A stretch of DNA of 64,000 nucleotides, taken from Chrysemys picta bellii. Taxonomy: Eukaryota > Chordata > Testudines > Emydidae. Under the pieces are notes generated by a model. It was given only the letters and a program-made list of their open reading frames with translations, made no database searches and was not told the origin of the DNA. Made by a program: the position numbers and the translations under genes. Positions 439 through 60,653 of this stretch are shown here, one piece after another; position 1 is the first letter of the stretch, and every line of letters starts with the position of its first letter. The stretch lies in contig NC_088804.1 in the NCBI RefSeq assembly GCF_011386835.1, positions 36,629,549 to 36,693,548 on the forward strand. The letters are read 5' to 3'.

Positions 439-443
439 GCCAT
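439..443. repeat. Target-site duplication, left (GCCAT)
   Basis: The five bases GCCAT immediately outside the left LTR are repeated immediately outside the right LTR. A 5-bp duplication is typical of Ty3/Gypsy integrases and fixes both element ends. Confidence 0.9.
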
Positions 444-1259
444 TGTCAGGACTGAGATCCCCACTTTGAACTTTAGGGTACAAATGTAGGGGCCTGCATA
501 AAAACTTCTAAGCTTAATTACCAGCTTAGCTCTGGTTCGGCTGCCACCATTTTCAATGGATTCCCTCCCTGGGAAACCTTGAAAAACCTTCACCAAATCC
601 CTGGTGAAAACAAATCCAACCCCTTGGATTTAAAACAAGGGGAAATTAACCATTCCCCTCCTTCCTCCCACCAACTCCTGGTGAATCAAGATCCAAAACC
701 CCTTTGGATCTAAAACAAGGAAAAAATCAATCAGGTTCTTAAAAAGAAGGTTTTTAATTAAAGAAAAAGGTAAAAATCATCTCTGTAAAATCAGTATGGA
801 AATCAACCTTACAGGGTAATCAAACTTAAAGAGCTCAGAGGACTCCCCTCTAGTCTCAGGTTCAAAGTACAGCAAACAAAGAGAAACACTCTAGTAAAAG
901 GTACATTTACAAGTTGAGAAAACAAAGGAAAACTAACACGCCTTGCCTGGCTATTTACTTACAAGTTTGAAATAGGAGAGACTTGCTTAGAAAGATGTGG
1001 AGAACCTGGATTGATGTCTGGTCCCTCTCAGTCCCCGAGAACGAACACTCTCCCAAACAAAGAACACAAACAAAAGCCTTCCCCCCCCCAAGATTTGAAA
1101 GTATCTTGTCCCCTTATTGGTCCTTTAGGTCAGATGCCAGCCAGGTTACCTGAGCTTCTTAACCCTTTACAGGGAAAAGGATTTTGGAGTCTCTGGCCAG
1201 GAGGGATTTATAGTACTGTACACAGGACAGCTATTACCCTTCCCTTTATAGTTATGACA
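444..1259 (-). repeat. 3' LTR of the Gmr1-like element
   Basis: 816 bp, matching 5261-6078 base for base by eye except that a C-run near 1080-1089 has nine Cs here and eleven in the other copy. The termini TGTCA and TGACA are inverted, as integrase requires. Short ORFs inside it are shared with the other LTR and are chance reading frames. Confidence 0.93.
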
Positions 1260-1270
1260 CGCCCCCCAAA
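1260..1270 (-). other. Polypurine tract (plus-strand primer)
   Basis: On the minus strand the bases directly before the 3' LTR read TTTGGGGGGCG, a G-rich purine run abutting the LTR start. This is the expected place and composition for the RNase H-resistant primer of second-strand synthesis. Confidence 0.75.
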
Positions 1271-1420
1271 TCACAGATAGTGTTGGATGTTCGGTTCCAC
1301 ACTGGCTGTGATTTCTTCCTGGAGTTCTAGGAGAAAACAGAGTTAATAAGACACATGTACCTTTAGACATACTACTGATTATATAAAAACTAACAATATG
1401 TTTCATTCCAAGAACAATTG

Positions 1421-4400
1421 TTAACCAGTTAACTCTGGGAAACTTTCCCGGGAAAGTGCATCAGCCACTTTGTTAGAAGCTCCCGAAATGTGTTGTATTT
1501 CAAAATCAAAATCTTGGAGAGCTAAACTCCACCGAAGAAGTTTTTTGTTATTTCCCTTGGCGGTATGAAGCCACTGTAGCGCAGCATGGTCTGTTTGTAG
1601 TTGGAAACGCCGTCCCCAAACATATGGGCGTAGCTTTTCCAGCGCGTACACAATGGCGTAGCATTCCTTTTCACTGATTGACCAATGGCTTTCCCTCTCA
1701 GACAGTTTCTTACTGAGAAACACGACAGGATGGAATTCTTGATCCGGTCCTTCCTGCATTAAAACTGCTCCCACGCCTCGCTCGGACGCATCTGTGGTTA
1801 CTAGGAACGGTTTGTCAAAGTCTGGGGCCCTTAGCACAGGGTCAGACATGAGTGTTGCCTTAAGCTGGTTAAAGGCCTTTTGACACTTATCAGTCCACTG
1901 AACTGCATTTGGCTGTTTCTTTCTGGTTAGGTCTGTCAGCGGGGCGGCGATTTGGCTGTAGTGGGGTACAAATCGCCTATAATATCCAGCCAACCCTAAG
2001 AAGGATTGGACCTGTTTCTTAGACTTTGGAACCGGCCACTTTTGGATAGCATCCACTTTGGCCTGTAGGGGATTTATAGTTCCTTGACCCACCTGGTGCC
2101 CCAGGTAAGTCACTCTGTTTTGGCCTATTTGACACTTTTTAGCCTTAACAGTTAGTCCTGCCTGCTGGATGCGCTCGAAAACTTTTTCCAGGTGCTCCAT
2201 GTGCTCTGCCCATGAATCAGAAAAAATGGCCACATCATCGAGGTAGGCAACTGCAGATTCTCCCAATCCCGCTAGGAGACCATCTACAAGTCTTTGGAAG
2301 GTGGCGGGTGCATTTCGCAACCCGAAAGGAAGTACATTGAATTCATACACCCCTGCCTGGGTGACGAAGGCTGACCTTTCCTTAGCGGGTTCATCTAGTG
2401 GTACTTGCCAGTACCCCTTGGTTAAGTCCAAAGTAGAGATGAATTGGGCATGTCCCAATTTCTCCAATAGCTCATCTGTGCGTGGCATTGGATAGTTGTC
2501 AGGACGAGTTACAGCATTTAGCTTACGGTAGTCCACGCAAAAGCGTATTTCCCCATCTGGTTTGGGAACTAGAACCACTGGAGATGCCCATGCACTCTTA
2601 GAGGGGCGGATTATACCCATCTGTAGCATGTCCTGGATCTCCCTTTGTATAGCCGTTTTGGCATGAGGTGACTCCCGGTAGGGTGGGGTTCTAATAGGGT
2701 GAGCATTACCTGTGTCAATGGAGTGGTATGCCCGTTCGGTCCATCCTGGAGTGGCTGAGAAAATTGGTGCAAAGCTTGTGCACAGCTCCTTGATCTGCTG
2801 TCGCTGCAGACGTCCAAGGGTCGTGGAGAGGTTCACCTCTTCCACGCCACCATCCTTTTTTCCTTCGTAGTAGACACCTTCAGGCCACTCCGCATCATCT
2901 GTTTCCTGGGCTGTAAACTGGCAAACGTTTAATTCTCTGGAATAAAAGGGCTTAAGAGAATTAACATGGTATACCTTAGGCTTTATGTTGGAGGTGGGGG
3001 AGGCTATGAGATAGTTAACAGCTCCTAGGCGCTCCTGGACCGTGAATGGTCCTTCCCACGACGCTTCCATTTTATGGGCCTGGAGCGCCTTTAAGACCAT
3101 GACTTGGTCTCCTACCTTGAAGGACCGTTCTCTGGAATGTTTATCATACCAGGCCTTTTGCTCTTCCTGAGCATCCTTTAGGTTTTCTTTAGCAAGGGCC
3201 AAAGAGTGTCGGAGGGTGCTTTGTAGGTTGCTTACAAAGTCTAGAATGTTTGTTCCTGGAGAAGGCGTAAACCCCTCCCATTGCTGCTTCACCAACTGTA
3301 ATGGCCCCTTAACCTCACGGCCATACACAAGTTCAAATGGTGAAAACCCTAAACTGGGATGTGGTACAGCCCTGTAGGCAAAAAGCAACTGCTGCAACAC
3401 GAGCTCCCAATCATTGGAGTGTTCATTTACAAATTTACGTATCATGGCCCCCAAAGTTCCATTAAACCTCTCCACCAGGCCATTGGTTTCATGGTGGTAA
3501 GGGGTGGCAACCAAGTGATTCACCCCATGAGCTTCCCACAGGCTTTCCATGGTTCCTGCCAGGAAGTTAGTTCCCGAATCTGTAAGGATGTCGGAGGGCC
3601 AACCTACCCTGGCAAAAATGTCTGTTAATGCCTGGCACACACTTTTAGCCCTGGTGTTGCTTAAGGGTACTGCTTCCGGCCATCGGGTAGCAAAATCCAT
3701 GAAAGTCAGTACGTACTGCTTTCCTCTGGGTGTCTTCTTTGGGAAAGGACCCAGAATATCCACAGCTACGCGCTGAAATGGGACCTCAATTATGGGTAGT
3801 GGCTGGAGAGGGGCTTTAACCTGGTCTTGGGGTTTTCCCACTCGTTGGCACACCTCACAAGACCGGACATAATTAGCAACGTCCTTGCCCATTCCCTCCC
3901 AGTGGAAGGACTTCCCCAACCGGTTTTTGGTTCTGTTCACCCCAGAATGGCCACTGGGATGATCATGGGCTAAGCTCAAGAGCTTTACCCGATACTTAGT
4001 GGGAACTACCAACTGCCTTTGAGGATGCCAGTCTTCCTGGTGCCCACCAGAAATAGTCTCCTTGTATAAAAGTCCTTGTTCTACAACAAACCGGGATCGG
4101 TTAGAAGAGCTGAGAGGCGGTGGGGTGCTCCGCGCCGCTGCCCAAGCTTTCTGAAGGTTGTCATCTGCTTCCTGCTCGGCCTGGAACTGTTCCCTTGATG
4201 CTGGAGACATCAGTTCCTCCTTGGACTGTGGACTGGGGCTTGGTCCCTCTGGAAGCGATGCAGGTGCTGGGGCTGTTTCCATTGACTGTGAACCGCTGTC
4301 CGCTGGAGCACTATGTGGTAACTCAGGCTCTGGCTGAGCCTCTTGGGTAGGGTTATCTGCTGCTTCTGCCAGTTCAGGCTCGCTGGTGCCCTCTGGCATT

Positions 4401-4909
4401 GGAGTTGTAGACGGGTTTGCAAGCGCTGGACTCAGGGCTGGCAATGGTTCTGGTGCTGGTTGCGTTGCCAGTTCCGGTACTGGGACTGGCTTTGGCTGGG
4501 TCTCTGGGATTGGATCCACTACGGCTGTTGCAGTCGTTGGCAGGGGATCCGGTTCCACCACCGTTGTTTGGGTCTCTGGTAACACAGACGGGGCCCTGGT
4601 GGATGGCTCAGGAACAGGGATGGGGGTGAAAGCTTGCTTAGCCTTTGCTAGTTCCAGTTCATGTTTCCTTTCTTTTTCTCTCTCCTCCATCTCTTTTTCT
4701 TTCAGCTCCATCTCTCTCTTGTGGGCCCTCTCTTTGGCTTTTTTCAGCTCCATCTCTCTTTCATGGGCCTCCTTTTTGGCTTTTTCTTCTCTTTCTTTCT
4801 GCTCTGTCTCGAGTTTTGCTAATTGAAGCAGTCTCTGATGTTTTCTTTCATTTTCTTCTGCTTCTAGTTTGGCCAGTTCTATTTTGTTAGCTACTTCTTT
4901 GGTAGTCAT
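1421..4909 (-). CDS. Retrotransposon polyprotein: coiled coil, Pro-rich, IN-RT-RNase H
   Basis: One open frame of 1162 codons from the first ATG after the leader. Residues 1-92 are a highly charged Lys/Glu/Arg coiled coil, and about 93-270 are Pro/Ala/Thr/Glu-rich. Integrase follows: an HHCC zinc module (His near 315-321, C351, C354), a catalytic triad D384, D444, E480 with the canonical 35-residue D-E gap, and a GPF module near 620. Reverse transcriptase spans roughly 690-930, with D828 in LDLTKGYW and the YLDD box at 889-892. RNase H spans about 1030-1152, with D1040, E1082, D1107 and D1150. All these active-site residues are present and there is no stop. No capsid, CCHC knuckle or retropepsin motif is visible. 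The coil could be the N-terminus of the original Gag. Enzyme domain calls are secure; the role of the first 270 residues is unknown. Confidence 0.93.
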   Translation of the reverse strand: MTTKEVANKIELAKLEAEENERKHQRLLQLAKLETEQKEREEKAKKEAHEREMELKKAKERAHKREMELKEKEMEEREKERKHELELAKAKQAFTPIPVPEPSTRAPSVLPETQTTVVEPDPLPTTATAVVDPIPETQPKPVPVPELATQPAPEPLPALSPALANPSTTPMPEGTSEPELAEAADNPTQEAQPEPELPHSAPADSGSQSMETAPAPASLPEGPSPSPQSKEELMSPASREQFQAEQEADDNLQKAWAAARSTPPPLSSSNRSRFVVEQGLLYKETISGGHQEDWHPQRQLVVPTKYRVKLLSLAHDHPSGHSGVNRTKNRLGKSFHWEGMGKDVANYVRSCEVCQRVGKPQDQVKAPLQPLPIIEVPFQRVAVDILGPFPKKTPRGKQYVLTFMDFATRWPEAVPLSNTRAKSVCQALTDIFARVGWPSDILTDSGTNFLAGTMESLWEAHGVNHLVATPYHHETNGLVERFNGTLGAMIRKFVNEHSNDWELVLQQLLFAYRAVPHPSLGFSPFELVYGREVKGPLQLVKQQWEGFTPSPGTNILDFVSNLQSTLRHSLALAKENLKDAQEEQKAWYDKHSRERSFKVGDQVMVLKALQAHKMEASWEGPFTVQERLGAVNYLIASPTSNIKPKVYHVNSLKPFYSRELNVCQFTAQETDDAEWPEGVYYEGKKDGGVEEVNLSTTLGRLQRQQIKELCTSFAPIFSATPGWTERAYHSIDTGNAHPIRTPPYRESPHAKTAIQREIQDMLQMGIIRPSKSAWASPVVLVPKPDGEIRFCVDYRKLNAVTRPDNYPMPRTDELLEKLGHAQFISTLDLTKGYWQVPLDEPAKERSAFVTQAGVYEFNVLPFGLRNAPATFQRLVDGLLAGLGESAVAYLDDVAIFSDSWAEHMEHLEKVFERIQQAGLTVKAKKCQIGQNRVTYLGHQVGQGTINPLQAKVDAIQKWPVPKSKKQVQSFLGLAGYYRRFVPHYSQIAAPLTDLTRKKQPNAVQWTDKCQKAFNQLKATLMSDPVLRAPDFDKPFLVTTDASERGVGAVLMQEGPDQEFHPVVFLSKKLSERESHWSISEKECYAIVYALEKLRPYVWGRRFQLQTDHAALQWLHTAKGNNKKLLRWSLALQDFDFEIQHISGASNKVADALSRESFPELTG

Positions 4910-5242
4910 TTTCCTGTTTTCTTGTGCTGGGTAACCCCCTCTGCAGTGGGCTGAAACTGGGAAGCTCTCAGCTCTGGCTGCTGCAGAGTTAACAGTAACT
5001 TTCTAACTAGCTACTCCCGAGGATGTAAAAAGAAAAGAAAAAAAAACAATTCAGCTTGTAAATACCTTTTACCAGTCATTTGCTAATTGAACCCTTCTCT
5101 TAACAAAGGACCTGTAAAAAAAAAACTTAACACCTCTGCCTTCAGGCAAGGAGAGATAAGATATGCATCTATCTACTTCCAGCTCGGCTTTCCAAGCAGC
5201 TAGAAGGAAAAAAAAATCTCACTGGCTTTTGGGTTTAAAATG
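4910..5242 (-). other. Element leader between primer site and ORF
   Basis: About 330 bases separate the primer-binding site from the polyprotein ATG. They are A/T-rich on the plus strand with A-runs near 5040 and 5117 and show no long ORF. Packaging signals usually lie here, but nothing specific can be read. The leader plus the first 270 codons is too short to hide a normal capsid-nucleocapsid-protease block. Confidence 0.6.
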
Positions 5243-5260
5243 ATCCCACCGCTGCCACCA
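5243..5260 (-). other. Primer-binding site for tRNA-Leu
   Basis: Directly inside the 5' LTR the plus strand reads as the last 18 nt of a mature tRNA, ending in CCA. The 15 nt before CCA match, from memory, the acceptor and T-arm end of vertebrate tRNA-Leu (AAG/TAG class, 3' end ...CCGCTGCCA). The minus-strand RNA would pair with all 18 bases and prime first-strand synthesis. Confidence 0.8.
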
Positions 5261-6078
5261 TGTCAGGACTGAGATCCCCACTTTGAACTTTAGGGTACAA
5301 ATGTAGGGGCCTGCATAAAAACTTCTAAGCTTAATTACCAGCTTAGCTCTGGTTCGGCTGCCACCATTTTCAATGGATTCCCTCCCTGGGAAACCTTGAA
5401 AAACCTTCACCAAATCCCTGGTGAAAACAAATCCAACCCCTTGGATTTAAAACAAGGGGAAATTAACCATTCCCCTCCTTCCTCCCACCAACTCCTGGTG
5501 AATCAAGATCCAAAACCCCTTTGGATCTAAAACAAGGAAAAAATCAATCAGGTTCTTAAAAAGAAGGTTTTTAATTAAAGAAAAAGGTAAAAATCATCTC
5601 TGTAAAATCAGTATGGAAATCAACCTTACAGGGTAATCAAACTTAAAGAGCTCAGAGGACTCCCCTCTAGTCTCAGGTTCAAAGTACAGCAAACAAAGAG
5701 AAACACTCTAGTAAAAGGTACATTTACAAGTTGAGAAAACAAAGGAAAACTAACACGCCTTGCCTGGCTATTTACTTACAAGTTTGAAATAGGAGAGACT
5801 TGCTTAGAAAGATGTGGAGAACCTGGATTGATGTCTGGTCCCTCTCAGTCCCCGAGAACGAACACTCTCCCAAACAAAGAACACAAACAAAAGCCTTCCC
5901 CCCCCCCCAAGATTTGAAAGTATCTTGTCCCCTTATTGGTCCTTTAGGTCAGATGCCAGCCAGGTTACCTGAGCTTCTTAACCCTTTACAGGGAAAAGGA
6001 TTTTGGAGTCTCTGGCCAGGAGGGATTTATAGTACTGTACACAGGACAGCTATTACCCTTCCCTTTATAGTTATGACA
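5261..6078 (-). repeat. 5' LTR of the Gmr1-like element
   Basis: 818 bp, the promoter-bearing copy in minus-strand orientation. It differs visibly from the 3' LTR only by two extra Cs in one run. TATA-like boxes lie very close to its upstream end, which implies a very short U3. Confidence 0.93.
6026..6070 (-). promoter_or_regulatory. TATA-like boxes in the 5' LTR
   Basis: On the minus strand CTATAAAGGG (6061-6070) and CTATAAATC (centred on 6026-6031) lie about 10 and 50 bases inside the LTR. Either could position transcription of the element. The second leaves a more usual U3 length. The same boxes occur in the 3' LTR. Confidence 0.45.
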
Positions 6079-6083
6079 GCCAT
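6079..6083. repeat. Target-site duplication, right (GCCAT)
   Basis: Exact partner of 439-443. The pre-insertion locus can be read as sequence up to 443 joined to sequence from 6084. Confidence 0.9.
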
Positions 6084-42160: not shown

Positions 42161-42946
42161 TTAGTTTCCTGTGTAAATGTACTTAATCGGTGACATTGGC
42201 GCCTCTGATATCAAGCTGTCTGTCTCATTGAAGGTATCCATTTCACCGGAGTGATTGGTGTTTTTTATCCTGTTTAGCCGGGACTGTAATCTTTCATGTT
42301 GTTTTCTCAACTCTGAATAGGAATGAGAGAAAGTGTGGAATATCGAGGTTGCTGGGAAAGCCATAATTAGAATCCCACTGAGGATGCTACTCAGCGCCAC
42401 CATCTGGCCCGAGACACTTCTTGGTACCATATCTCCATATCCCACAGTGGTCATTGAGATGATAGCCCACCAGTATGAGGCAGGAATGCTTGTAAATTCA
42501 AGGACCTTCCCAGATTCATTTTCAGCCAGGTAGACCAGGGGAGAAAACAGGGTGACAGCTACACACAAGAAGAGCAAAAGCAGCCCAAATTCTCGGGTGC
42601 ACCTTCGAACCGTGAGCCCTAAAGTCTGCAGGCCTAATGAGTGCCTGGCAAGGCGCATTACATACAAGATCCTCAAGGCACGTAAAACTCGTAGCACCAG
42701 TCCGATCTTCTCCAAATATGAGTTGCTGCTCGGCCTCTCGTCTTCTTCACTTGGCTCGTCATCTACCACTATGAGGGAAACATAATAGGGTGAAATAGCC
42801 AAGAAATCAATGATATTTAGGGGGCCTCTGAAGAAGTGACACTTGCTCTTCGCCTGAATAAATCGGAGGCAGAGCTCCAGCGAGAACCAAGCCACGCAGA
42901 TGGTCTCGATGATAAAGATGTAATAGCACTTCTGAGAACATTCACC
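42161..42946 (-). CDS. KCNG4: KCNG4 coding exon 2: Kv6.4 S2 to C-terminus
   Basis: Encodes residues 251-511 of an electrically silent (KvS) potassium channel alpha subunit, which is expected to act only in heterotetramers with Kv2 subunits at the plasma membrane. The exon opens after a CAG acceptor with a T-rich tract and begins GECS; the stop is at 42161-42163. Visible: S2 about 258-279, S3 292-310, S4 331-351 with Arg at 336, 339, 342, 348 and 351, S5 369-390, selectivity filter TTVGYGD at 416-422, and S6 about 431-454. S6 has Pro-Ala-Thr (448-450) in place of the Pro-Val-Pro bend of conducting Kv channels, a mark of Kv6 subunits. Recalled similarity to mammalian KCNG4 is very high through the core; the last 50 residues diverge. 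An upstream ATG at 43072 lies in the intron and is not the start. Confidence 0.96.
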   Translation of the reverse strand, partial: GECSQKCYYIFIIETICVAWFSLELCLRFIQAKSKCHFFRGPLNIIDFLAISPYYVSLIVVDDEPSEEDERPSSNSYLEKIGLVLRVLRALRILYVMRLARHSLGLQTLGLTVRRCTREFGLLLLFLCVAVTLFSPLVYLAENESGKVLEFTSIPASYWWAIISMTTVGYGDMVPRSVSGQMVALSSILSGILIMAFPATSIFHTFSHSYSELRKQHERLQSRLNRIKNTNHSGEMDTFNETDSLISEAPMSPIKYIYTGN

Positions 42947-43946
42947 CTGGCGCAAAACAAACAGAAGGTCAAATAAATGAGCAATCTCTGAACTGATATC
43001 AGAAATCATTAAAGGAGCAGAAATGTGCATCTTCGTGGGTGTACTGGTATTGCGGGAAAACAAACCCAGCAAATAGCTACTTCTATAGCAGCCATGTTAC
43101 ATCCTGTTAAAAAGCTATTCGAGTGAACTGTTGTTATTTTAATTTTATTACTCTTATGAGTCTGAATGGATGAAATTCATCTTTGTGCAAAGGCCCAGCA
43201 CAAGGCATATGGACTATTTAAGTCCCATTTAAGCCCTGAAAATAGAAATTAATTGAGACTTAAATGGTGCATAAGTCTGCACAGAAGTAAATTTAACCCT
43301 AAGTGAGGGATTATTTTATGGATGTTCTGATTCTCTTTCTGCTCTGTGTGTAAAGTACTATTCAAAGTGTGGTGACTGCACAGATACTAGGTAGTTTGAT
43401 GTGATGAAGGGAAATAGCTCAGAGATGGAGAAGACCTACTACATCATTTTTTAGACCTTGTCCCTAGTTGTGCCCTAATATAAACCACATATTTTCTTTC
43501 AGGCTATGCAAGTATGCTATGAACATTAAAATCAAAAGGAAGATTAAATAAAAAAACACTCATCCAGCAGGTGCAACATACCAATGGAGATTTCTGTTCT
43601 AGGGTTGATGTCACATGATACCAGTGCTACCTTCTGAGCCACTACATCAAGACAGTTATACAAACGTCAGCTGCCCTGAGCAGTGATGGATTCACTATTT
43701 CCCTTGTCCCAGGATGAGCCTAAAAATGTTACCTTCCATGACTTGTTCAACCTGAAGGCAAGAGTCAAACACAACTTGCCTCCCCAGTCCCTTCAGTCAC
43801 TTAGGAATTGGATAAACTTTAGAAAACATCACATACATGAGAAACTACATTGGGCACTTCACCTAAGTGATAAGAGAGCCAAACACTGGGTCTGCTGACA
43901 ATGTCCAGATGATCAGAAAACCATCCAGTGCTCACATTAGATACAG

Positions 43947-57836: not shown

Positions 57837-59883
57837 ACTTTATCCTTTGCTCAACTTCACCCCATTACTCCCACTTCCATGCAGACTCTTTCTCAAATAC
57901 TGCAGCATCTATGAATGATAGAATTCTATGATTCTATATTATTAATGTCTTAATCCCAACTTTTTAAAGTGTCTACACATTAAAAACCTGACTATATATA
58001 TAAAAAAAAACCTATGCTAATTAACACAGCTCTATTTTATAGAACACTCTGGCTGCAATGAGACTACTACATCTTACTACCAGCTACATTTGTACCCCTA
58101 AGCTCAAAATTCTTGCCTTCTGAAGATAGGGTTAATTTTAAAAAAAATGCAGCAAATTAGACCTCGTTGAGATCTGATACAGTGATTATGTGTTTCTTGT
58201 TTTTCTTTAAAAATATTTAGACAAGAGTTCTCTTGTTTATGTTTTAAATTTGAGATAAAATATGCATCATGCTCTCTTTTAGGAACAAAGTTAATAGGAT
58301 GCAATATTTCCCATAGAAGTCTTCATGTTCATTTGCTTATAACCATAAAAACATGCTCTGTATTTAAAGCTGCATCTTGGAAAAGGCACTGAAACATCTT
58401 AACAATTTTTACTTCAAAATGCAATAGCTTTGGGAGGCTAGTAGATACTCAGAGATATTACTGAAGGGATTCAAACTTTTTATAAAAATGTAAGTAGAAA
58501 TTCAAGGTTATATCGAACAGGAAATGATCTCTTTAAAACCCAAACTTCTGTGCCATCCTTAGCTTTATTGAAAGACATCAAATATCATGACATATCTTTG
58601 ATGTGACTGCATTCTGTGCCCTCCTGAATTACTACTTGGACAATAAAATGCACACAGCATATTGTGCAATAAATGTGGAAATGGTTTCATTAAGCCATGC
58701 ACAATAAACTGATGAGAAACTTATCATCTATGGCATCAACGGGAAAAGGTGAATGTGGCTTTTTTTTATTTAATCTTGGTGTCGGTATTTTGAAAAGTGT
58801 CATGTTATTTTCCAAATCAGTTTGTAGAATACAGCATGGGGAAGAATCCACTAGTAGTTTGGATGTTATTATACCTAAAATCACATTACATTTTTAACTC
58901 CATCTCTTTTCTTATTAGAATGACAGATCTTTATAACATTGAAAGTTTCTCCCACATATGATATAAGTTTGATTTATTTGCCCTGAATTATTTCAGGAGA
59001 TGTGTTTGGAGAGGGTTTATATGTACTTAATGGGTTAAAATTTCAGCCACCCTTTAAGAGTGTTTCTGCAATTTGTTTGTGTGTCCAAATGCAGGGTACT
59101 ACAGACACAAAACTTGTGCATCCATTTTGAAGGCAAACTTTGAAACTCCACTTCGGTGGTGGTGTTTGTTTGTTTGTATATCATAATGTGTTATCATTGT
59201 ACAAAATGTAACACAATATTATTCTGGAAAAATGATTTCAAGTCTCCTAAAATAATAACTAATCAGAGTTGCTCTAGTTATCACAACAGAAGACAACTTG
59301 CTATTTTTAAAAATAAAGATGCCAGGGAAAAATATTTCTTTCACTAAGTCTGTTTGAAATATTGCTGATAACTAGAGTGATCCTATGGTAGGATAAAGCA
59401 TGTGGTAGATGAAACTCTGCTATGAATGAGTGTATGAGACTCACTGCTAACAGCAAATAAAATAACTTTTGCTAACAACTCTTTCCTAAGCTGTGGGTGA
59501 GGTGTGTGTGTGGGGCGGAGATGCTGTGTTACAATGCTGCGTGCTCGGTATTTGCTAAATGCAGGAGCAGTTGTAGAATCTTAATTCTTTGATTCCATTC
59601 AGAAAGCCTTTTCTATATCTCTGGCTGGCAAGCAATACAAAACTTTACTTAATTCTTTGTGACTGAATATGGCTTTGAAACTGATACAAAGTCAGTTTCA
59701 GGAGTTATTTCTATTTATAATAATAACAATATACACTGGCAAATTTTGATATTATTTCCTGAGGATTTTCTCCGAGGATTATTTTGTATCTTTTTGTGAT
59801 GCATGTTTAACAATGACAGGTTTGCTTCTTGTAACACTATAGTAGGCTTATAGAGGGTTGAAACACTAGTTAAAAGGGGACTT
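57837..59883. other. KCNG4 intron stretch without recognised feature
   Basis: AT-rich. A (TTTG)n patch lies near 59162-59177. No gene or named repeat. Confidence 0.4.
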
Positions 59884-59889
59884 ACTTAC

Positions 59890-60639
59890 CCTGTCTTCTT
59901 CGGCTCTTAAGTCCGGCATGGTGCTAACACAAAGGCTTATAGCTGTGGTGGCCACAAAGAGGATGGAGAGACAAGCAAAGACTTTTCCTGGGAGTCCTGA
60001 CTGGGGATTTTCGACCATATCCCTGAGTTTATTCATAAATTGTTCAAATTGTGTTTCCTCAACCAAGACACATGTGGTCTCCTTGCTCATTTGCATCTCT
60101 TCCTCCTTGTGCATCTCTGCCAGCTCCTGCAGTTTTTGAAACAGTTTTCGGAAGCAGCATTTCTCCAAGTTGGATTCCTCAATTCCCCAGTATCTCAGCT
60201 CCTCCTGGAATGACAAGGCACACATGTCTCGGAAGAGCATCAGCTTCCCTGCTGCTAGAAAGCTGACGATCATCCCAAAAGCGTTGGGATTCCGGTCGAA
60301 GAAGAACTCATGGGTGTCTTCATCATAATCATCACACAGCTGAATAATTTCATCGTAGCTGCTGCAAAACTTTAGCTTGCTTAGCCGGGTCAGTGGGAAT
60401 TCGTCTAAAGTGCTCCAAGGCAGCAGGTATTTGATTCCTCCAACATTTATGATGATCTCCCTCTTCACATCAACTGTACAGAGCTGATCAGGGTGGTAAA
60501 TTCTCCTGGCCCTTTGATAGTGGACCCCTTTGACAGAAGGGGTGTCAACAGAGATAGGGAACAGATGGTTTAAGGAACTACAAGAACCGTAGCTAATGTT
60601 ACTATAGTCCTGGTTGCTGCCTCCCGAGACAATAGGCAT
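59890..60639 (-). CDS. KCNG4: KCNG4 coding exon 1: N-terminus, T1 domain and S1
   Basis: Encodes residues 1-250 of Kv6.4. The start is the first in-frame ATG of the family-like N-terminus (MPI...). The T1 tetramerisation domain (about 61-163) is recognised by INVGG, LPWSTLDEFP, the LCDDYDED and EFFFDRNPNAF segments, and the C-x20-CC pair (C140, C161, C162). T1 selects partner subunits. A charged linker follows, then NPQSGLPGKVFACLSILFVA leading into S1 (about 217-239) and MPDLRAEED. The exon ends AGG with donor GTAAGTAAG; reading through adds seven intronic codons before a stop. Joined to exon 2 it gives EEDR-GECS in frame, where human has EEDQ-GECS from memory. 511 residues against about 519 in human. 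Confidence 0.96.
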
Positions 60640-60653
60640 TTCTGAGAGTTCTC

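What the first reader, a model, noticed from the sequence alone, without database searches (positions are those of the whole stretch)
1421..4909. Integrase-before-RT Gypsy element with intact enzymes but no capsid, nucleocapsid or protease
Seen: one 1162-codon frame with integrase (D384, D444, E480), then YLDD reverse transcriptase, then RNase H, all active-site residues kept. Known: this order within Ty3/Gypsy is restricted to Gmr1-like elements of deuterostomes, whose Gag is the proposed source of the vertebrate SCAN domain. Odd: the Gag-PR block is missing, yet the frame is open and the copy is young. Inference: this is either a recent in-frame deletion, or an expanding sublineage that borrows Gag from relatives or from a SCAN-like host protein.
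Basis: partly seen in the sequence, partly recalled or inferred. Interest (0 to 1): 0.78.

Follow-up and report, generated by a model that had tools for sequence, protein, structure and literature searches.

The report
Capsid-less turtle jumping gene lineage
A jumping gene in what is very likely a painted-turtle genome has lost the genes for its capsid and protease yet sits at dozens of chromosomal places, likely because it is packaged by intact sister copies that live in the same genome, an arrangement known from barley.

Summary
Window 444-6078 is an LTR retrotransposon (minus strand): LTRs without a substitution between them, a 5-bp target-site duplication, and one open 1,162-codon frame for integrase, reverse transcriptase and RNase H, without capsid, nucleocapsid or protease.

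Full-length sisters carry the missing 1,170 nt (SCAN-type capsid, CCHC knuckle, retropepsin) at exactly that place; the junction lies in a 10-nt direct repeat. The window's junction recurs exactly at 53 places (253 with up to 3 mismatches; control 0). Of the 40 scored copies nearest the window, 12 carry the deletion and 28 are full-length type. Ten deletion copies read to both ends have different target-site duplications and LTR divergence of 0-2.7%; six of the seven young ones keep the frame open, as do 13 of 14 full-length copies read. The two forms share recombined sequence.

So this is not a private lesion but an amplified, persistent Gag/protease-less sublineage, most likely packaged in trans by full-length siblings, as in barley BARE2, rice Tos17 and mouse IAP I-delta-1. 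No host SCAN protein is needed. Domain order and RT phylogeny (moderate support) place it with Gmr1-like elements, which are not confined to deuterostomes.

The parts
439..443 (.). target-site duplication, GCCAT (left copy)
   Evidence: sequence
444..1259 (-). 3' LTR
1260..1270 (-). polypurine tract (TTTGGGGGGCG in element sense)
1421..4909 (-). single 1,162-codon ORF: Gag N-terminal charged region - proline-rich linker - integrase - reverse transcriptase - RNase H
1508..1897 (-). RNase H domain, residues 1005-1134
   Evidence: Pfam PF17919/PF17917
2090..2569 (-). reverse transcriptase, residues 781-940, YLDD 889-892
   Evidence: Pfam PF00078
2948..4006 (-). integrase (H2C2 finger, DDE core D384 D444 E480, p58-type C-terminus), residues 302-654
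   Evidence: Pfam PF17921, PF00665, PF22938
4635..4644 (-). deletion junction inside the 10-nt repeat AGGCTAAGCA; 1,170 nt (SCAN-type capsid, CCHC, protease) absent here, present in full-length siblings
4646..4909 (-). retained N-terminal charged, coiled-coil-like Gag region, residues 1-88 (coiled coil judged by eye, not predicted)
   Evidence: alignment with P0098
4910..5242 (-). leader between primer-binding site and start codon
5243..5260 (-). primer-binding site TGGTGGCAGCGGTGGGAT, complementary to the 3' end of a tRNA-Leu gene of the same genome plus CCA
5261..6078 (-). 5' LTR
6079..6083 (.). target-site duplication, GCCAT (right copy)
   Evidence: sequence

Best explanation
The window holds one copy of a sublineage of a Gmr1-like (integrase-before-RT Ty3/Gypsy) retrotransposon in what is very likely a painted-turtle genome, which lacks capsid, nucleocapsid and protease through the same 1,170-base in-frame deletion that recurs at dozens of places, and which likely moves because intact full-length siblings package its RNA and supply Gag and protease in trans. 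Shown: the deletion, its recurrence, separate target-site duplications, near-identical LTR pairs in the young copies, open full-length siblings, shared leader, primer site and polypurine tract, and RT-RNase H segments shared without a substitution by copies of the two forms whose junction-side sequence differs. Inferred: the deletion arose once, by a reverse-transcriptase jump (or recombination) between two copies of the 10-nt repeat AGGCTAAGCA; packaging is by the siblings' particles; the shared segments come from two RNAs co-packaged in one particle; the deletion copy's own integrase-RT-RNase H polyprotein is matured by the siblings' protease, if it is used at all.
For: The junction sequence occurs exactly at 53 places (50 on contigs C1-C26) and at 253 places with up to 3 mismatches, control 0. 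Of the 40 copies nearest the window (the 40 scored of 1,150 candidates), 12 have the deletion and 28 are of full-length type (14 of the 28 judged from the 3' boundary of the block alone). LTR pairs of the 7 young deletion copies read differ by 0,0,0,1,0,2,0 substitutions per about 816 bp, those of 13 full-length copies by 0 or 1; all 20 have perfect 5-bp target-site duplications, all different. Three older deletion copies: 5/819, 24/886 and 14/894. The block missing here codes SCAN (40.0 bits, cut-off 27), CCHC (20.0, cut-off 20.8) and RVP (17.1, cut-off 20.7) in each of 3 siblings tested. 13 of 14 full-length copies are open (12 with 1,552 codons, one read as 1,607) with all markers; 6 of 7 young deletion copies keep the 1,162-codon frame. 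The allele CTAG beside the junction marks the deletion lineage: 53 exact deletion places against 1 place with the full-length sequence; no deletion is found on the allele GTGG that all 14 full-length copies read carry. Deletion and full-length copies share RT-RNase H without a substitution over 1,688 columns in 7 of 98 pairs, although the first 80 nt after the junction differ by 4-6 substitutions between the forms.
Against: No RNA, particle or mobilisation data exist here, so trans-packaging is inferred. The two forms are interspersed in the PRO-IN tree, so single origin rests on the CTAG marker and on raised association within 100 nt of the junction (mean r2 0.216 at 7 sites against 0.064 at 63; one-sided Mann-Whitney p=0.0026, a cut chosen after seeing the bins), whereas the trend over the whole 1,676 nt is not significant (Spearman p=0.60); recurrence at the same repeat in the past is not excluded. 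Shared segments could also come from gene conversion between genomic copies, or, for leader types, from exchange between deletion copies (L013 groups with deletion copy L052 before the full-length ones). Integrase polymorphisms present in two or more copies are N:S 26:22 in deletion copies against 8:15 in full-length ones (no significance test), which hints at weaker constraint on the deletion lineage's Pol. At least 31 of the first 100 listed junction places lie on small contigs C31-C56 in a repeated pattern, so 253 overstates the number of insertions.
Confidence: 0.85

Rival explanations
1. The deletion is formed again and again from full-length RNAs at the same 10-nt repeat, so deletion copies are dead-end by-products and not a lineage.
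For: Deletion copies are scattered among full-length ones in the PRO-IN tree; 32 of 70 informative sites show all four combinations of form and allele in two or more copies; GTAG and CTAG versions of the junction both exist.
Against: CTAG is at 53 exact deletion places and 1 exact full-length place, while 99 of the 100 listed of 256 full-length 5' boundaries carry GTAG; no deletion on the current full-length allele GTGG.
Confidence: 0.12
2. The deletion began as a spliced RNA that was reverse-transcribed (a GC-AG intron removing capsid to protease).
For: With the common full-length allele the junction can be read as AAG|GC...CAG|GC.
Against: GC donors are rare and this one is weak at +3, +5 and +6 against the consensus as I recall it; no long pyrimidine run precedes the acceptor; a 10-nt direct repeat explains the junction without splicing; the form is not found on the current full-length allele.
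Confidence: 0.07
3. The deletion copies borrow a capsid from a host SCAN-domain protein.
For: The missing capsid is SCAN-type, and vertebrate SCAN proteins are thought to derive from Gmr1-like Gag (PMC3424704, passage).
Against: Full-length siblings with the same leader, primer-site alleles and polypurine tract are present and open; shared segments point to exchange with those siblings; a host SCAN protein would bring no protease.
Confidence: 0.03
4. A private deletion of this one copy, or an assembly artefact.
For: None beyond the window itself.
Against: Same junction at 53 exact places, 12 of the 40 nearest scored copies, different target-site duplications.
Confidence: 0.01

Closest known systems
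BARE2 of barley (Ty1/Copia)
   Same: Subfamily that cannot make Gag, is parasitic on BARE1 and is packaged in its particles (PMC3735527, abstract and passages seen).
   Different: Copia of a plant; [quoted passage not shown] packaging there was shown by experiment.
Tos17 of rice (Ty1/Copia)
   Same: Active element with an open integrase-RT frame and no gag, presumed to use another element's Gag (PMC3977881, abstract and passages seen).
   Different: Copia; gag gone without identifiable remnant; the presumed donor is a distinct element, 57% similar in DNA (Lullaby), whereas here the donors would be near-identical siblings.
IAP I-delta-1 of mouse (endogenous retrovirus)
   Same: 1.9-kb deletion of part of gag and pol leaving a fused open frame; [quoted passage not shown]
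   Different: A retrovirus; deletion takes part of pol as well; here all of IN, RT and RNase H remain and the whole protease is lost.
Gmr1-like Ty3/Gypsy elements
   Same: Integrase before RT; SCAN-type Gag in full-length copies; RT in the same clade.
   Different: No Gag-less sublineage of Gmr1-like elements was seen in the listings (open-licence papers only).

Membership tests
Gmr1-like Ty3/Gypsy | integrase upstream of reverse transcriptase in one pol frame | tested here: met
   all 26 relatives put in the tree have the same order (26 of 120 listed were used)
Gmr1-like Ty3/Gypsy | RT groups with other integrase-first elements, apart from RT-first Gypsy | tested here: met
   28-tip integrase-first clade (window, 26 relatives, P0185), UFBoot 84, which is moderate; all 10 proteins read as RT-first lie outside; the 27-tip set without P0185 has 63; no named Gmr1 sequence was in the tree
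Gmr1-like Ty3/Gypsy | SCAN-type capsid in Gag | tested here: met
   absent in the window copy, present in 3 of 3 full-length siblings tested and in P0098
LTR retrotransposon | paired TG..CA LTRs, target-site duplication, primer-binding site, polypurine tract | tested here: met
Gag-less, trans-mobilised LTR element (BARE2/Tos17 type) | no Gag, open Pol | tested here: met
Gag-less, trans-mobilised LTR element (BARE2/Tos17 type) | has inserted although Gag-less | tested here: met
   10 deletion copies with own target-site duplications, LTR divergence 0-2.7%
Gag-less, trans-mobilised LTR element (BARE2/Tos17 type) | shares packaging and priming sequences with a Gag donor | tested here: met
   leader, both primer-site alleles and polypurine tract shared with full-length copies; the packaging signal itself is not mapped
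Gag-less, trans-mobilised LTR element (BARE2/Tos17 type) | RNA found in the donor's particles | not testable with these tools
   needs particle RNA
IAP I-delta-1 | endogenous retrovirus with part of pol deleted | tested here: not met
   Ty3/Gypsy element with IN, RT and RNase H complete

The most novel reading that the evidence does not exclude
The family is becoming a two-part retrotransposon: the Gag-less lineage is kept, not merely tolerated, as a dedicated Pol supplier (integrase-RT-RNase H without capsid or protease), while full-length copies, whose relatives in sea turtles and a tortoise appear as Gag-protease-RT proteins without integrase at one boundary that fits a GT-AG intron, act mainly as Gag-protease-RT suppliers; exchange of segments keeps the two parts matched.
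Probability: 0.07. Interest if true: 0.85.

Novelty: new variant of a known kind. Interest (0 to 1): 0.5.

Why it matters
As far as I know, Gag-less but Pol-intact partners are best documented for plant Copia elements; this is a candidate in an animal Ty3/Gypsy family, with many young copies of both forms side by side in one genome. That makes open questions testable by sequence: how long a parasite of a parasite lasts, whether it slows its helper, and how often retroelement RNAs are co-packaged and recombine. The missing capsid is of the type from which vertebrate SCAN domains are thought to derive (PMC3424704, passage).

Tried and rejected
A capsid or protease frame in the leader or antisense: none found (10 of 21 further ORFs scanned; leader frames closed). 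A deletion-bearing relative among known proteins: of the 129 proteins listed, two (P0016, P0063) have the linker without capsid and protease, and neither has the N-terminal region, so none shows this junction (E-value and block searches only). Relatives in viral contigs: none confirmed. Integrase-less copies in this genome: 0 places for one junction pattern. Spliced origin of the deletion: see rivals. Purifying selection on the deletion lineage's Pol: counts only, not decisive. Other Gypsy elements of this genome as outgroups, and a second primer tRNA for the other primer-site allele: requests did not complete. Of the two genome places matching the tRNA-Leu end, ARAGORN calls a gene at one (L073), not at L072. 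Age in years is rough: with the crocodilian rate 3.9e-10 per site and year (PMC4299795, passage) the oldest pair (JC 0.0276) gives about 35 My, with an assumed 1e-9 about 14 My; the window copy, 0 of 816, is under about 5 My or 2 My (upper bound 3/816).
Full report
What is in the window. Bases 444-6078 are one LTR retrotransposon on the minus strand. The LTRs (5261-6078 and 444-1259) align without a substitution and with 2 gap columns; the element is flanked by GCCAT on both sides. The 18-nt primer-binding site is complementary to the 3' end of a tRNA-Leu gene of the same genome plus CCA, and a G-rich polypurine tract precedes the 3' LTR. The only long frame, 1421-4909, has 1,162 codons and codes integrase, then RT and RNase H; catalytic residues are at the stated places and invariant among 17 aligned proteins. 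No Gag, zinc-knuckle or protease family is matched, and 10 of the 21 other ORFs of the region, those scanned, match nothing.

What is missing. A protein search listed 120 of 378 relatives. P0098 of Chrysemys picta (818 aa) matches the window at 78 of 85 aligned residues in the first 92 (plus a 7-residue gap) and at 321 of 328 in linker-integrase. Between them it carries 390 further residues with a SCAN domain (40.7 bits, cut-off 27) and, below their cut-offs, a CCHC knuckle (15.2, cut-off 20.8) and a retropepsin (14.9, cut-off 20.7). The window joins ...AKAKQ directly to AFTPIP..., exactly where the block sits in P0098.

The window lies in assembly G000 (2.37 Gb); contig C2 is 291,300,265 bases against 291,303,948 for a Chrysemys picta contig, so the host is very likely painted turtle (inferred). 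A 901-bp integrase-region probe gave 40 scored copies of 1,150 candidates, the window among them. I read 20 others at length and 201 bases at the junction of the remaining 19. With the window, 12 of 40 carry the identical deletion and 28 are of full-length type; for 14 of the 28 only the 3' boundary of the block was read. These 40 are the nearest to the window, so the ratio is not genome-wide. Genome-wide, the junction is found exactly at 53 places and at 253 with up to 3 mismatches; the full-length 3' boundary at 555 and the full-length 5' boundary at 256, each with up to 3 mismatches; the backwards-pattern controls of these searches are 0. At least 31 of the first 100 listed junction places are on contigs C31-C56 in a repeated pattern, so 253 counts some duplicated scaffolds; 50 of the 53 exact ones are on C1-C26.

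The deletion copies have moved. Seven young deletion copies have LTR pairs with 0-2 substitutions per about 816 bp, 13 full-length copies 0-1 (L028 left out: its 3' LTR is cut short); all 20 have perfect 5-bp duplications, all different. Of four further deletion copies, chosen with variant junction alleles, three have both LTRs, with 0.6%, 1.6% and 2.7% divergence and their own duplications. So copies with this junction were inserted over a long time and until recently. Frames: 13 of 14 full-length copies are open (12 of 1,552 codons from the first Met, L028 read as 1,607; L010 is broken), 6 of 7 young deletion copies are open (L015 ends early), and the three older ones are broken. Pfam on the block of 3 siblings gives SCAN 40.0, CCHC 20.0 and RVP 17.1 bits, the last two under their cut-offs (20.8, 20.7).

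Origin and exchange. The common full-length allele GTAGCAAAGGCTAAGCAGG (99 of the 100 listed of 256 places) and the downstream CCAGGCTAAGCAAG share AGGCTAAGCA; loss of 1,170 nt between the two gives the junction seen. A base next to it (CTAG for GTAG) marks the window's form: 53 exact deletion places against 1 exact full-length place. All 14 full-length copies read carry GTGGCAAAAG; a deletion on that allele is found nowhere. This favours inheritance of the deletion from copy to copy over constant re-formation. Yet in a tree of 1,676 bp (PRO-IN; 23 deletion, 22 full-length copies, two of them only half covered) the two forms are interspersed, 32 of 70 informative sites show all four combinations, and the association with the deletion is raised only within 100 nt of the junction (cut chosen after seeing the bins; the whole-length trend is not significant). 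Among the 21 copies read at length, deletion and full-length copies have RT-RNase H without a substitution in 1,688 columns in 7 of 98 pairs, while the first 80 nt after the junction differ by 4-6 substitutions between the forms, at most 3 within the deletion form and at most 1 within the full-length form. So the junction haplotype is old and distinct but the enzymes are shared: the forms exchange sequence. L013 shows exchange on the other side: RT-RNase H as in the window, but a leader/N-terminal segment 12-17 substitutions from full-length L023/L026/L028 and 67-71 from the other six young deletion copies; its closest leader is that of deletion copy L052, so the partner in that case may have been another deletion copy. 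Retroelements recombine when two RNAs share a particle (established knowledge), so this is what co-packaging would leave; gene conversion between genomic copies is the alternative.

How it most likely works. Full-length copies make Gag, protease and Pol. The deletion RNA has the same LTRs, leader, primer site and polypurine tract and so would be packaged, copied and integrated with them. Whether its own integrase-RT-RNase H is used is unknown; integrase polymorphisms present in two or more copies are 26 replacement to 22 silent in deletion copies and 8 to 15 in full-length ones, which does not show that the frame is needed.

Family. Domain order and RT phylogeny put it with Gmr1-like elements: 57 sequences (window, 26 of the 120 relatives, 30 of the 120), 414 columns; window, the 26 integrase-first relatives and P0185, also integrase-first, form a clade (UFBoot 84; 63 for the 27 without P0185), and the 10 proteins read as RT-first fall outside. 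Nineteen outgroup proteins showed no integrase match, so their order is unknown, and no sequence named Gmr1 was in the tree. Gmr1-like elements are also reported from crustaceans (PMC3587641) and an annelid (PMC8220671), passages seen.

Against what is known. The arrangement works like BARE2/BARE1 (PMC3735527), Tos17 (PMC3977881) and IAP I-delta-1 (PMC6466679), of which I saw passages, and for the first two the abstract. It differs in being an animal Ty3/Gypsy element, in losing capsid, nucleocapsid and protease but no part of IN, RT or RNase H, and in living beside near-identical intact siblings. The listings showed no paper on it; only open-licence papers were searched.

Noticed in passing
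P0021-P0062 and others; window about 4092 (donor) and 2948 (acceptor): 53 of 129 listed relatives have capsid, protease and RT but no integrase, 50 of them with the same boundary NRSR|EL or NRSR|DL, in sea turtles and a tortoise. The boundary coincides with a GT...AG pair present in the window (weak donor, pyrimidine-rich acceptor), and one pattern for such a DNA junction has 0 places in this genome, so a facultative intron around integrase is likely.
   Followed up: partly
window 5243-5260; 21 copies: Two primer-binding-site alleles, TGGTGGCAGCGG (complement of tRNA-Leu) in 6 copies and TGGTGAATAGCGG in 15, occur in both deletion and full-length copies, as expected if the site is sometimes rewritten from the tRNA primer.
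   Followed up: partly
P0076 (Lepidochelys olivacea, 1,193 aa): In a second, about 50% identical turtle Gmr1-like family, one protein model goes from the Gag N-terminus to integrase without capsid, knuckle or protease: a second Gag-less form, or an intron in a gene model.
   Followed up: no
L023, L048: LTR length varies in steps of about 81 bases; in L048 the 5' LTR is 981 and the 3' LTR 819 bases although they differ by only 5 substitutions.
   Followed up: no
L020: A stretch of the leader (about 100-130 bases) is present twice or interrupted in this full-length copy.
   Followed up: no
G000 contigs C31-C56: Small contigs carry GTAG and CTAGCC versions of the deletion junction again and again (31 of the first 100 places), suggesting an amplified scaffold with an embedded deletion copy.
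   Followed up: no
window 42161-43096 and 59866-60651 (-): Two exons of a host ion-channel gene (Ion_trans and BTB_2 domains; voltage-gated potassium channel by recall); the element lies about 36 kb 3' of it.
   Followed up: partly
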